From: Granulosicoccus sp.
GTDB taxonomy: Bacteria; Pseudomonadota; Gammaproteobacteria; Granulosicoccales; Granulosicoccaceae
Reading direction: 5' to 3'
NCBI GenBank assembly: GCA_020627685.1
Contig: JAHDGK010000017.1
Span: 1-64,000, forward strand
Length of the DNA stretch: 64,000 bases
The position numbers and the translations under genes were made by a program. Positions 54,579 through 58,686 of this stretch are shown here, piece after piece. How positions within the stretch are numbered: position 1 is the stretch's first letter; every line of letters begins with the position of its first letter. The notes beneath the pieces are model-generated. The model was not told the DNA's origin, ran no database searches, and saw only the letters and a list, made by a program, of their open reading frames with translations.

Positions 54579-55763
54579 ATGATCAGGTTACTTTTTTTCA
54601 TTGTGTGCACAGTAATTGGCGCATCAGGTGGCTGGTGGCTATCCACAGGCGGTGGCCCGCTTGCCAACCTCAGCAACACCCTGGGGCCTCTCTACGAGGC
54701 GCCCACAGCGCTGGACACTGAGACGTCAGCTCCCGGTCAGCCGCTCGAACCAGCCAACTCCAACCAGCCTTTTTCAGACACTTCCTATACGTCAAACAGA
54801 AGCCCGGTGGTTTTGAGTTACCACGACGGCATCATGAAAGTAGCCCCGTCAGTGGTTAGTTTGTACGCCAAAGCCGACTCCGACACACAGGCAACGAGTC
54901 AGGGCTCCGGGGTTATTGTTGACGCCAACGGCATTATTCTGACCAATTTTCACCTGGTCGAAGGACTTAGCCTTATTACCGTCGTGCTCAGCGATGGTCG
55001 AAGTTATTCCGGCGAACTTATAGGCAGCGATCAGGAAACAGACCTCGCGGTGGTCAAAATAGCGGCCAACAATTTGCCGTATATGCGACTGGATGAAGCA
55101 GCCCCGCTTCGTGTTGGTGACGTTGTACTAGCCATCGGCAACCCTTTTGGTGTCGGCCAAACGGTTACACAGGGCATCGTTAGCGCGACACGACGCCGGG
55201 TCGCAGGTGGCACTGTCTGGCAAAATTTCATTCAAATAGATGCGGCAATCAACCCCGGCAACTCCGGTGGCGCACTCATAAATCCACAGGGACAACTCGT
55301 TGGCGTCAACACCGCCGTATTCCGGGGTGATTCAGGAGCCATTGGCATCGGATTCTCTATTCCTGCCGACCTGCTCGCCCAGGTTGTGCCGCAGATCATC
55401 GAGAACGGTTCTGTAGCCCGGGGCTGGTTAGGCATTGGCGTGGACGACATCACCATGTTTCCGGTACTGCGACGACTGGAAATGCAAGGCGCTGTGATCA
55501 CCGCGGTATTAGAAGGCAGTCCGGCTAGCAACGGCGGCTTACGACCTATGGATATCGTGGTAAGACTCGGGGAGCAGCCTATTGTTAATGCCACACAACT
55601 GCTGCTTCAGGTATCCGCCCTACCGCCCGGGGCTACCGTCAAACTAAGCATTATTCGTAGCCAGCCTAACGCCCTGACCGACTCCACGCAGCTAATAGAA
55701 TTTGAAGCACTGGATTTGAAGATGAGATTGGGTATCAGACCCCAACTCAATTCAGCCGGCTAG
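54579..55763 (+). CDS. degS: DegS-type periplasmic serine protease
   Basis: This 394-residue protease of the DegS/AlgW type is anchored by one N-terminal membrane helix. The catalytic triad is H125 (LTNFHLVEG), D155 (ETDLAVVKI) and S229 (NPGNSGGAL). A single PDZ domain follows at about residues 285-375 (RGWLGIGVDD, ITAVLEGSPAS). One PDZ, a membrane anchor and no signal cleavage favour DegS over DegP. DegS senses misfolded outer-membrane proteins and cuts the anti-sigma-E factor. The gene is divergent from petA, and converges on the metalloprotease gene with a 5-bp gap. Confidence 0.9.
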   Translation: MIRLLFFIVCTVIGASGGWWLSTGGGPLANLSNTLGPLYEAPTALDTETSAPGQPLEPANSNQPFSDTSYTSNRSPVVLSYHDGIMKVAPSVVSLYAKADSDTQATSQGSGVIVDANGIILTNFHLVEGLSLITVVLSDGRSYSGELIGSDQETDLAVVKIAANNLPYMRLDEAAPLRVGDVVLAIGNPFGVGQTVTQGIVSATRRRVAGGTVWQNFIQIDAAINPGNSGGALINPQGQLVGVNTAVFRGDSGAIGIGFSIPADLLAQVVPQIIENGSVARGWLGIGVDDITMFPVLRRLEMQGAVITAVLEGSPASNGGLRPMDIVVRLGEQPIVNATQLLLQVSALPPGATVKLSIIRSQPNALTDSTQLIEFEALDLKMRLGIRPQLNSAG

Positions 55764-55768
55764 TTGAG

Positions 55769-58009
55769 CTAGACAGGTTGCGGGCGCGAGCGCCGGCTTC
55801 GCAGAAGAATTCCAAAAGCGCCCAGCACTAACCATACTGAACCCAAAGCACCTGAGGATTTCGCCGCACTTGGCGAACCACTTACCGTGCCGTCACTTGT
55901 GGACGGCGCTACAGAACTCACCGGCGATTGTCCGCCGCTAATCAAGTGCTGCGAGGATGATCCGCCTTCCACCAGAACAGTGGCAAGATTATCGGAGGAG
56001 CGCAGCTCCAAAAGTCCAATCGGCGACAGCTGCCCTGAGACCGGTGCATCACTGTTCTGAAAAGCTTCATTCACCGTGAGTGACAGGGTTCGTTGGCTGG
56101 CAGGTTGTATTGTGTCGATAAAACACATAGCACTTGTGGGCGTTTGCACCCGGCACCCGGCAGGCCATTCCACCTGATCAGGACTACTGGTTTCGATTTC
56201 CAGCTGCGCATCAAGCGTTAACGATGCATCCGGATTGACGATGTCGAAATTTACGACTGTGCCGGTTGACGATGCATTAAGCGACAAGTCAACGCTATTA
56301 ATCAGGCACTGCTTACCATGCGACTGCAAAATACTGTCCTGACTACAGGACGTGAATTCAGGTTCAGTTCGACTGGAAATATTCGGCCACATTAAAGACT
56401 TCGAATTAGTACCACACTCGGTGTCAGTATCATGCTGTGCTCCCAGCGAATGCCCTAACTCATGAGTCAGCAGTACATCGCCAAATCGAGACGGTGTTGT
56501 TACTCCAACATCATAGCCATCGACACGGCAAGCCGTATCAATCCATGCCAAACCTAAAGTGACATCCGATCGCGGATTGCCTGTAAAGAGATAAGTCAGC
56601 GCACTATTTCCGAATAGCGTTTTGTACTGTAATCGGTAGTCTCTGAACGAGCGCAGGATAGTTTCCAGTGTCACGCGCCCCAAGTTCATAGGGTCATCGG
56701 CGTCCTCAAGCGTCACCGCTTCATCTAGTACCAATGCCAAACCGAACTGTCGGTAGATTCCGTCTGCCACGTTCATATTATTCAGTGCCTCTATCAAACC
56801 GGCTCCGGCGTAATAGCGGTTGTACTGACTATCGACAACGATGGAAACGGGTACTGCGCGAACATCGGTATGGACCGTTCGCGAGCGAGATTGAACAGAC
56901 TCTTGAAACTCAGGGGGTGGCGCAATCAACGCATCAATACCTTGTACATTGTCTGCAAGATCAGAAGACACCGTTCGCGTACTGTCGCCACTGCGCGCGC
57001 GAGGCTGATAGTAATCCAAGGTACCGATTAAGTTATCGGGCCTGACCTGATGCTGCTTACCGTTCATATAAACCGCACCACTGATGGCGCTTTGCTGCAA
57101 TACAACACGCACCCAGCTGTCGTCGACACCGTCAACAACACCATCGTAGACACCCACAGACGGTGGTAACTGGTTTGACAGTTTTCCATCAAGCCACTGC
57201 GTTTCACGGGTCAACGGACTTGGCACTAGCAACAGTTGTAAATCAATGCCATCAACATTGACGGACACGCGAAGCTTACCGTCCGATTGCTTCTGGCGTG
57301 AGCCCAACCGACTTGCGTTGGTTATGCGCTCTTCAACAATAGCCAGACGCCTATCGGCCCGATCAAACCAATAGCGAGAAAGCACGGTGCCTTTGGGCCA
57401 ACGGAATTCTAGAGGCAAATTTAAGGCTGTGTGCCTGTCACGCAAATCCATCAGCAGTGTTCTTGCTGCACTGGTGTTGCCCAGCTGTTCCAACGCAATG
57501 GCTTCCAGATACTGAGCTGAATCTGTATAGGCAGAATCAGGGAATCGCTCTTCCAACGTGCGCAATGATATTCGCGCTTTTTCGAAATCATAGCGATCCA
57601 TAACCTGTAAATAGGCCATGATGTACAAGGCATCGTCCGTCAGCGTGCCAGCCGGATCAGCCGATGCGATAGTTCCCAAAGACACCAGGGCCGCATCCAT
57701 ATTGCCGTTGTCCCGCAGCGTTAGCGCTGATAGAAAAACACGCAACGACTCTCCCGCGTCAGCAGACTCCTGCAGAACCGCTATGCGAGTTTGTACACCG
57801 GCTATTTTCGTGTAGTTGGGGAAACGAATTTGCACTTGCCTAAGCGTTGCAAGTGCCTGCGAATAGCGCTGACCCTCAATTTGCGAAAGAGCACGAGAAT
57901 ACAATCCGTCGGCAACGAACTCTCCCTCTGCTCGAGACTGCGCATTTACAACTGTCGCAAGCAGAGCGCAAGCAACAAAGCACACTGCACGTAACAACGA
58001 AGCATTCAC
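55769..58009 (-). CDS. reprolysin-like (M12B-type) zinc metalloprotease with TPR-like N-region and C-terminal sorting tail
   Basis: This 746-residue protein has a signal peptide (1-25), then helical repeats of TPR type (about 30-190, such as YSQALATLRQVQIRFPNYTK). A beta-rich segment resembling an M12B propeptide follows (about 245-330). The protease domain is at about 385-570, with the zinc motif HELGHSLGAQHD (H516, E517, H520, H526) and a Met-turn Met at 540. After another beta-rich region, the last 33 residues have a small-residue hinge, one hydrophobic helix and a basic end (LLRSRRSRP), like GlyGly-CTERM tails cut by rhombosortase. Cysteines are several and may form disulfides. The substrate is unknown. 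Confidence 0.85.
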   Translation of the reverse strand: MNASLLRAVCFVACALLATVVNAQSRAEGEFVADGLYSRALSQIEGQRYSQALATLRQVQIRFPNYTKIAGVQTRIAVLQESADAGESLRVFLSALTLRDNGNMDAALVSLGTIASADPAGTLTDDALYIMAYLQVMDRYDFEKARISLRTLEERFPDSAYTDSAQYLEAIALEQLGNTSAARTLLMDLRDRHTALNLPLEFRWPKGTVLSRYWFDRADRRLAIVEERITNASRLGSRQKQSDGKLRVSVNVDGIDLQLLLVPSPLTRETQWLDGKLSNQLPPSVGVYDGVVDGVDDSWVRVVLQQSAISGAVYMNGKQHQVRPDNLIGTLDYYQPRARSGDSTRTVSSDLADNVQGIDALIAPPPEFQESVQSRSRTVHTDVRAVPVSIVVDSQYNRYYAGAGLIEALNNMNVADGIYRQFGLALVLDEAVTLEDADDPMNLGRVTLETILRSFRDYRLQYKTLFGNSALTYLFTGNPRSDVTLGLAWIDTACRVDGYDVGVTTPSRFGDVLLTHELGHSLGAQHDTDTECGTNSKSLMWPNISSRTEPEFTSCSQDSILQSHGKQCLINSVDLSLNASSTGTVVNFDIVNPDASLTLDAQLEIETSSPDQVEWPAGCRVQTPTSAMCFIDTIQPASQRTLSLTVNEAFQNSDAPVSGQLSPIGLLELRSSDNLATVLVEGGSSSQHLISGGQSPVSSVAPSTSDGTVSGSPSAAKSSGALGSVWLVLGAFGILLRSRRSRPQPV

Positions 58010-58026: not shown

Positions 58027-58686
58027 CTATTGCTTGTTGATTCGTCGTGTTTTGCTATCGTCCTTTGCCGGAAAAGACTCGTTCTTAGCTCGCGCTGCCC
58101 TATCGAAATAGGTGAGTACGTTGTGGCAATCTTTTAATGCCTGGCGAACTTCCTTGTCATCGGGGCTTGGCTGATCATCTAATCCGTCCATGACTTTCGT
58201 CAGCTCACGAGCTTCACTGATTTTGCCATGCACTTGATCCAAGGCACGATTCAATGCAACACATAGCTCGTTAAATTCAAGGCTATCGCCTGTTCGTAAA
58301 CGAACTTCCAGATTGCCATCACCAATTTCGTTGAGTGCACGCTTGATAGCCAGGATAGGATTGCCCAACTTGCGCAGCACATATATAGCAATGCTGCCAG
58401 TCACGATAGCATTGATAACTAACATGACCACTAACCAAGACCCAAGTACGCTAGTCATCGAAGGAATAGCATCGCCTAGCCCACCCATGTCTTCGGAGGC
58501 GAACAACAAAGGGGCATTACCGGCTACTAACTTTCCTAGGAATGTGTAATAGAAAACACCCAATACGATGGTCGACTGAACGATGAAAAACGCAGTCATC
58601 CACATGATTCTACGTATCATGCGAAATTGAAACGCTTTATCACCATACAGTGATTTTGGAAAAGTAGCGTCTGATGAACGCGCCAT
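58027..58686 (-). CDS. HAMP-domain membrane protein without an output domain
   Basis: This 219-residue protein has two membrane helices (about residues 27-53 and 82-108) around a roughly 30-residue periplasmic loop. A HAMP domain follows the second helix (GNPILAIKRALNEIGDGNLEVRLRTGDSLEFNELCVALN). After that there is only a short helical tail with charged residues. No kinase, cyclase or chemotaxis domain is present. The ATG at 58686 has AGGGGAT just upstream; a frame to 58734 is longer but has no such support. The metalloprotease gene follows 17 bp later, so the pair is probably one transcript. Possibly a sensor or scaffold for the protease. Confidence 0.75.
   Translation of the reverse strand: MARSSDATFPKSLYGDKAFQFRMIRRIMWMTAFFIVQSTIVLGVFYYTFLGKLVAGNAPLLFASEDMGGLGDAIPSMTSVLGSWLVVMLVINAIVTGSIAIYVLRKLGNPILAIKRALNEIGDGNLEVRLRTGDSLEFNELCVALNRALDQVHGKISEARELTKVMDGLDDQPSPDDKEVRQALKDCHNVLTYFDRAARAKNESFPAKDDSKTRRINKQ

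What the first reader, a model, noticed from the sequence alone, without database searches (positions are those of the whole stretch)
55769..58009. M12B-type metalloprotease with TPR-like N-region and a sorting tail
The reprolysin-type HELGHSLGAQHD zinc site, a propeptide-like segment, an N-terminal repeat domain and a GlyGly-CTERM-like tail are combined in one protein. The tail predicts processing by a rhombosortase and surface attachment or release via type II secretion. Bacterial proteases of this layout are little described. It could target host or prey proteins.
Basis: partly seen in the sequence, partly recalled or inferred. Interest (0 to 1): 0.55.

Follow-up and report, generated by a model that had tools for sequence, protein, structure and literature searches.

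The report
ADAM-like bacterial protease with HAMP partner
A marine bacterium carries a secreted zinc protease of the ADAM / snake-venom type with an extra repeat domain and a membrane-sorting tail, and the gene just before it encodes a small membrane signalling-type protein that, in related bacteria, is found next to genes with this same repeat domain, which suggests an undescribed membrane partner for secreted enzymes.

Summary
The ORF encodes a signal peptide, a TPR domain (about 33-222), a prodomain, an M12B/reprolysin catalytic domain (384-572), an Ig-like region and a C-terminal tail. The genome has a rhombosortase and type II secretion genes. The tail has the three-part GlyGly-CTERM architecture but does not reach the TIGR03501 cut-off, and a genus-specific tail model did not separate it well from shuffles; relatives in two other families do pass. 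The prodomain matches the ADAM17 prodomain by profile (E 0.0011), yet all 43 aligned orthologues lack the cysteine-switch Cys that six TPR-less relatives keep. In 48 genomes of the order, 69 of 74 homologues of it sit directly upstream of a gene with this same TPR domain (28 TPR-M12B, 41 TPR-only); the other five lie at contig ends. The pair persists in other families, and in another class the TPR is fused to a different domain. I read it as a surface-sorted ADAM-type zymogen whose TPR domain docks on an inner-membrane HAMP partner. Sorting is supported by context; docking is inferred. Nothing supports a host or prey target.

The parts
55769..58009 (-). TPR-M12B metalloprotease gene, 746 aa, GTG start
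   Evidence: SD-like GGCGGAG upstream
57941..58009 (-). signal peptide, residues 1-23 (by eye; cleavage near VNA|QS)
   Evidence: sequence; no signal-peptide program was run
57344..57913 (-). TPR domain, residues 33-222 (YbgF/BamD-like)
   Evidence: PF13174 1e-10; TIGR02795 and TIGR03302 match 43 of 43 members, in P0001 below their cut-offs; profile match to CpoB 6g5s E 0.0033
56915..57298 (-). ADAM-type prodomain, residues 238-365; no Cys; D359 in 42 of 43
   Evidence: profile A4 vs ADAM17 propeptide 8snm_A E 0.0011; counts
56294..56860 (-). M12B/reprolysin catalytic domain, residues 384-572
   Evidence: PF01421 1.3e-13; acutolysin-C 1qua 9.8e-11
56429..56464 (-). zinc site HELGHSLGAQHD, residues 516-527
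   Evidence: all six key residues 43 of 43
55940..56287 (-). Ig-like / DUF11-like region, residues 575-690 with invariant C619 and C629
   Evidence: DUF11 in 9 of 43 members; C619 and C629 43 of 43
55772..55870 (-). C-terminal sorting-type tail, residues 714-746: small/Gly motif, hydrophobic stretch, Arg-rich end
   Evidence: tripartite rule met; TIGR03501 not met
58027..58686 (-). partner gene: two-TM protein with HAMP domain (conserved start MARSSD at 58686; longest ORF starts 58734), 17 bases upstream of the protease gene
   Evidence: PF00672 9.8e-7, 29.5 bits vs 25; alignment A3; pairing

Best explanation
The gene makes a secreted zinc endoprotease zymogen of the ADAM/reprolysin type. It would enter the periplasm by Sec, stay anchored in the inner membrane by its C-terminal tail, be cut and passed on by rhombosortase, and be delivered by type II secretion to the cell surface. 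Latency would rest on an ADAM-type prodomain that has no cysteine switch. While still at the inner membrane, its N-terminal TPR domain docks on the short conserved periplasmic loop of the HAMP protein encoded just upstream, which holds the zymogen, times its release, or reports its presence to the cytoplasm. Shown here: domains, conservation, presence of rhombosortase and T2SS, and the HAMP-TPR gene pairing. Inferred: processing, localisation, physical docking, and direction of control. Substrate unknown; self or community envelope/matrix proteins are as likely as host proteins.
For: Catalytic fold and residues. ADAM17 prodomain match: E 0.0072 (whole-length profile) and 0.0011 (prodomain profile); five of the six chains listed at E <= 10 are ADAM17. 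Sorting: rhombosortase in this genome and in 47 of 48 genomes of the order; in a class sample 13 of 14 genomes with an M12B relative also have rhombosortase, against 127 of 369 overall (Fisher p 6e-6, or 3e-4 without the own family); in G091 and G191 the TPR-less M12B gene and the rhombosortase gene are divergent neighbours (coordinates). T2SS: GspD 610 bits, GspE 698.6 bits, both over cut-off, plus GspC and GspF. Partner: 69 of 74 HAMP homologues directly upstream of a TPR gene; the other 5 at contig ends. In the class sample HAMP homologues were found in 6 of 369 genomes, all six with TPR-M12B. In f52 the pair persists while other neighbours differ. f61 has a diverged HAMP-family gene upstream (A3 9.2e-12). 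Three of four f207 genomes pair the HAMP gene with the TPR fused to another domain.
Against: The tail fails TIGR03501 and a genus tail model gave only 2.1 bits, reached by 174 of 2000 shuffles and 13 of 392 control C-termini. One genome with the protease (G029, 94% complete) shows no rhombosortase. 19 of 47 TPR-M12B hits in the order have no HAMP gene upstream: every g5 one plus G001, G002, and G023 at a contig end, so the partner is not indispensable. Structure models were too poor to test anything (mean pLDDT 47.9 and 36.9). The f61 upstream protein does not reach the Pfam HAMP model.
Confidence: 0.5

Rival explanations
1. The tail is only a C-terminal membrane anchor: the protease stays in the inner membrane facing the periplasm and is not processed by rhombosortase or secreted.
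For: Tail under the TIGR03501 cut-off and weak with a genus model; GlyGly-CTERM matched in 2 of 43 orthologues; partner is itself an inner-membrane-type protein.
Against: Tripartite tail in 31 of 43 orthologues by rule, against 16 of 495 control C-termini, 9 of which are themselves GlyGly-type or M12B-family proteins; f61 and f145 relatives pass the model; association with rhombosortase and two adjacent gene cases.
Confidence: 0.25
2. The HAMP protein is a dedicated secretion chaperone for the protease, as CpaB is for CpaA in Acinetobacter.
For: Membrane-associated chaperones for T2SS substrates, and CpaA as an adamalysin-like T2SS substrate, are in the titles and abstracts listed; that CpaB is the chaperone of CpaA is recalled.
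Against: The same HAMP family pairs more often with TPR-only genes (41 of 69) and, in f207, with a TPR fused to another domain, so what it recognises is the TPR, not a protease; its bulk is cytoplasmic HAMP and coiled region rather than periplasmic (topology by eye).
Confidence: 0.2
3. The two genes are neighbours for expression reasons only and the proteins do not meet; the TPR domain binds something else, such as envelope or peptidoglycan-synthesis proteins as CpoB does.
For: TPR is closest to YbgF/CpoB and BamD; g5 genomes keep TPR-M12B without the HAMP neighbour.
Against: Pairing follows the TPR through different fusion partners and across families and a class, which is hard to get from shared expression alone; the one genome without HAMP (G047) also has no TPR hit.
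Confidence: 0.25

Closest known systems
Adamalysin/reprolysin family M12B (ADAM17, snake-venom metalloproteases)
   Same: zinc site, Met-turn, Cys pattern of the catalytic domain, and a prodomain related to that of ADAM17
   Different: no cysteine switch, no disintegrin or EGF region found; N-terminal TPR domain and bacterial sorting tail instead
GlyGly-CTERM / rhombosortase substrates (VesB of Vibrio cholerae)
   Same: signal peptide, propeptide, catalytic domain, Ig-like domain, linker, tripartite tail; rhombosortase and T2SS in the genome
   Different: different protease class; tail weaker than the model; no TPR domain or HAMP partner seen for VesB in the passages read of PMC6219818 and PMC13393428
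CpaA of Acinetobacter (adamalysin-like T2SS substrate with membrane chaperone CpaB)
   Same: bacterial adamalysin-like protease secreted by T2SS (titles and abstracts) with a neighbouring membrane protein (recalled)
   Different: NF033511 10.1 bits vs cut-off 750; no GlyGly-type tail or TPR recalled for CpaA
SVAGG family GlyGly-CTERM proteins (NF038115)
   Same: weak match over the zinc region, 36 of 43 orthologues at E <= 10
   Different: 18.7 bits against a cut-off of 150
YbgF/CpoB and BamD TPR proteins
   Same: TPR type
   Different: below the cut-offs of those models; fused to a protease

Membership tests
Peptidase family M12B (reprolysin) | Pfam PF01421 over gathering score | tested here: met
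   51.9 bits vs 20.8
Peptidase family M12B (reprolysin) | HExxHxxGxxHD zinc site and Met-turn | tested here: met
   43 of 43 orthologues
Peptidase family M12B (reprolysin) | proteolytic activity | not testable with these tools
   needs purified protein
ADAM | ADAM-type prodomain | tested here: met
   ADAM17 propeptide E 0.0011 over 57 profile columns; PF01562 (number recalled) is not among the listed Pfam matches
ADAM | cysteine switch in the prodomain | tested here: not met
   0 Cys in residues 238-383 in 43 of 43
ADAM | disintegrin and Cys-rich domains | tested here: not met
   no such family among the matches up to E 10
GlyGly-CTERM protein | TIGR03501 over cut-off | tested here: not met
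   not among the 12 matches in this genome nor listed for P0001
GlyGly-CTERM protein | Gly motif without Cys, hydrophobic stretch, basic end, at the very C-terminus | tested here: met
   rule after PMC3237569 (passages)
GlyGly-CTERM protein | similarity to the tails of this genome's own GlyGly-CTERM proteins | tested here: inconclusive
   2.1 bits; 174 of 2000 shuffles and 13 of 392 controls as high
GlyGly-CTERM protein | rhombosortase in the same genome | tested here: met
   148.7 bits vs 84
GlyGly-CTERM protein | T2SS in the same genome | tested here: met
   GspC, D, E, F
SVAGG family | NF038115 over cut-off | tested here: not met
   18.7 vs 150
CpaA | NF033511 over cut-off | tested here: not met
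   10.1 vs 750
Fragilysin | TIGR03935 over cut-off | tested here: not met
   13.2 vs 190.7

The most novel reading that the evidence does not exclude
A small HAMP membrane protein plus a TPR domain form a general envelope module, not tied to the protease: the TPR domain plugs a secreted effector (ADAM-type protease, Ig-like lipoprotein, a glycosidase-like protein in another class) onto an inner-membrane HAMP protein that passes a signal across the membrane or gates release of the enzyme. In the protease version, TPR-HAMP docking would have taken over latency or timing from the missing cysteine switch.
Probability: 0.3. Interest if true: 0.72.

Novelty: new variant of a known kind. Interest (0 to 1): 0.5.

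Why it matters
It gives a bacterial relative of ADAM17 with a recognisable prodomain but no cysteine switch, next to relatives that keep a Cys, so how latency changed can be tested directly. It also exposes a conserved gene pair, HAMP protein plus TPR protein, whose effector domain is swapped between lineages; if the two proteins bind, that would be a membrane partner for rhombosortase/T2SS cargo, a step of that pathway about which little is known.

Tried and rejected
Structure: AlphaFold on a four-row alignment (window plus L048-L050) gave mean pLDDT 47.9 and, for prodomain plus catalytic domain, 36.9. I used them for no claim.

Aspartate switch: D359 is D in 42 of 43 orthologues, but the aligned TPR-less paralogues and the f52 and f61 proteins show no clear counterpart, so I leave it as a lead.

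Furin-like cleavage: an R-x-x-R/K or dibasic stretch before the catalytic domain is in 20 of 43; not conserved enough to claim.

Viral relatives: a scan of viral contigs with A1 found none. ADAM17 match of the L121 prodomain slice alone: no ADAM hit at E <= 1, although the whole L121 protein matches ADAM17 (9o54_A) from residue 71 to 263 at 3.4e-5, no single stretch passing on its own. So the cysteine-switch comparison rests on position and an invariant Cys in 6 of 6, not on a tested alignment to ADAM17.

Genus tail model: not discriminating, told above. Literature: searches for rhombosortase, M12B with GlyGly-CTERM, Granulosicoccus with metalloprotease, HAMP with TPR and metalloprotease, adamalysin and bacterial prodomain, HAMP with TPR gene pair gave no listing whose title or abstract start describes this layout or pair; the library lacks most subscription papers. 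PMC9238374 (kelp microbiome MAGs) was searched for protease, peptidase and rhombosortase: none.

Full report
The protein. The ORF at 55769-58009 on the minus strand is open as described and encodes 746 residues from a GTG start. Pfam finds Reprolysin (PF01421, 51.9 bits, cut-off 20.8) and TPR_6 (41.9 bits, cut-off 26.3). The best solved relatives are snake-venom metalloproteases such as acutolysin-C (9.8e-11). In 43 aligned orthologues the zinc-site residues H516, E517, H520, G523, H526, D527, the Met-turn M540 and the cysteines C494, C532, C555, C568 never vary. The window lies in a 4.93 Mb genome; the nearest named records found are Granulosicoccus and Granulosicoccaceae MAGs.

The prodomain. 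Residues 238-383 carry no Pfam name. A profile of 34 orthologous slices matched the ADAM17 propeptide (8snm_A, E 0.0011); of six chains listed up to E 10, five are ADAM17 and one is a cytochrome P450 at 0.3. None of 43 orthologues has a Cys between 238 and 383, so the ADAM cysteine switch is absent. Six TPR-less relatives from other families (L115, L116, L121, L122, L123, L124) share one invariant Cys in the same region (C182 of L121), some in a CG or CGV context. The two TPR-less relatives from the own family that I aligned (C105 of this genome and one from G020) have none there.

The tail. It has a small-residue/Gly motif, a hydrophobic stretch and an arginine-rich end. By a rule written after the definition in PMC3237569 (passages), 31 of 43 orthologues have such a tail, against 16 of 495 control C-termini, 9 of which belong to M12B relatives or a known GlyGly-CTERM protein. 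Of the 12 orthologues that fail, two are cut by contig ends (L058, L064) and several others carry a D, E, K or R inside the hydrophobic stretch. TIGR03501 was not reached by this protein and matched 2 of 43 orthologues at E <= 10. A model of eight tails from this genome gave the window tail 2.1 bits, which 174 of 2000 shuffles and 13 of 392 controls reached; 23 of 42 orthologues scored at or above the 99th percentile of controls. Relatives L119 (a TPR-M12B of family f61, 19.2 bits) and L116 (15.7 bits) pass the 15.5-bit cut-off.

Sorting and secretion genes. The genome has one rhombosortase over the cut-off, nine proteins over the GlyGly-CTERM cut-off, GspD and GspE over their cut-offs, and GspC and GspF by Pfam. 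Rhombosortase was over the cut-off in 47 of 48 genomes of the order; the miss is G029, which does have the protease. In 369 genomes of the class, 14 had an A1 match and 127 a rhombosortase; 13 of the 14 had both (Fisher 6.1e-6; 3.3e-4 without the own family). Genomes are not independent, so these p-values are optimistic. In G091 and G191 the M12B gene and the rhombosortase gene are divergent neighbours (coordinates). PMC3237569 reports such adjacency where a genome has a single GlyGly-CTERM gene (passages); I did not count those genes in G091 and G191. How VesB is processed is taken from passages of PMC6219818 and PMC13393428.

The partner. The gene 17 bases upstream (58027-58686) encodes a protein with two hydrophobic stretches and a HAMP domain (PF00672 29.5 bits, cut-off 25) and no output domain among its Pfam matches. 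Its N-terminus, loop and HAMP region are conserved in 33 aligned sequences. In 48 genomes of the order, 74 homologues were found in 47 genomes. Of these, 69 lie on the same strand within 1.5 kb upstream of a hit to the P0001 TPR domain: 28 before TPR-M12B genes and 41 before TPR-only genes. The five others (G001, G002, G023, G031, G034) lie at contig ends; for G002 and G034 about 0.5 kb of contig remains downstream, so these are untested rather than confirmed. The genome without the HAMP gene, G047 (100% complete), also lacks the TPR hit and keeps a TPR-less M12B gene. Conversely 19 of 47 TPR-M12B hits lack an upstream HAMP gene: the g5 ones, G001, G002 and, at a contig end, G023.

Beyond the family. 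In the class sample HAMP homologues occurred in 6 of 369 genomes, all six with TPR-M12B; in the three f52 genomes the pair is adjacent while the other genes around it differ. In f61 the upstream 193-aa gene is a diverged member (A3 E 9.2e-12). In 398 genomes of the phylum, A1 matched this genome and four of family f207, the latter in the TPR part only; three of the four have the HAMP gene directly upstream, and the protein continues with a stretch that I read by eye as glycosidase-like, without a Pfam match. The same TPR is fused to a sulfatase in g5 genomes (PF00884; two of the four long TPR-only proteins scanned), there without a HAMP neighbour. In this genome the second HAMP gene precedes a TPR protein with a HYDIN/VesB-type Ig domain match (24.2 bits, just under its 25.5 cut-off).

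Reading. The catalytic type and fold family are secure. Surface sorting by rhombosortase and T2SS is likely from context but not shown by the tail model. That the HAMP protein works with the TPR domain is the best explanation of a pairing that follows the TPR through different fusion partners; the contact and the direction of control are inference. Nothing here bears on substrates, and the idea of host or prey targets has no support.

Noticed in passing
L148:717-2822 (G009), L150:2123-4249 (G015): In g5 genomes the same TPR domain is fused to an arylsulfatase-type domain (PF00884, 9.8e-51 and 6e-56), without a HAMP gene upstream.
   Followed up: partly
L162:556-3201, L163:2485-5013, L164:2470-4998 (family f207): TPR fused to a long unnamed stretch that looks glycosidase-like by eye, with the HAMP gene directly upstream; no Pfam match beyond TPR.
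   Followed up: partly
G091:C1:1002060-1004009 and G191:C53:5104-7493: TPR-less M12B gene next to and divergent from the rhombosortase gene.
   Followed up: partly
L115, L116, L121, L122, L123, L124: One invariant Cys in the prodomain of TPR-less M12B relatives, cysteine-switch-like, absent from the TPR lineage.
   Followed up: partly
G000:C107:3865-5506 (L111): Second HAMP-TPR pair of this genome: HAMP gene followed by a TPR protein with a HYDIN/VesB-type Ig match and a lipobox-like start (by eye).
   Followed up: partly
window 54579-55763 (+): Trypsin-PDZ (DegS/DegP-type) protease gene, convergent with the M12B gene, conserved beside it in the genus.
   Followed up: no
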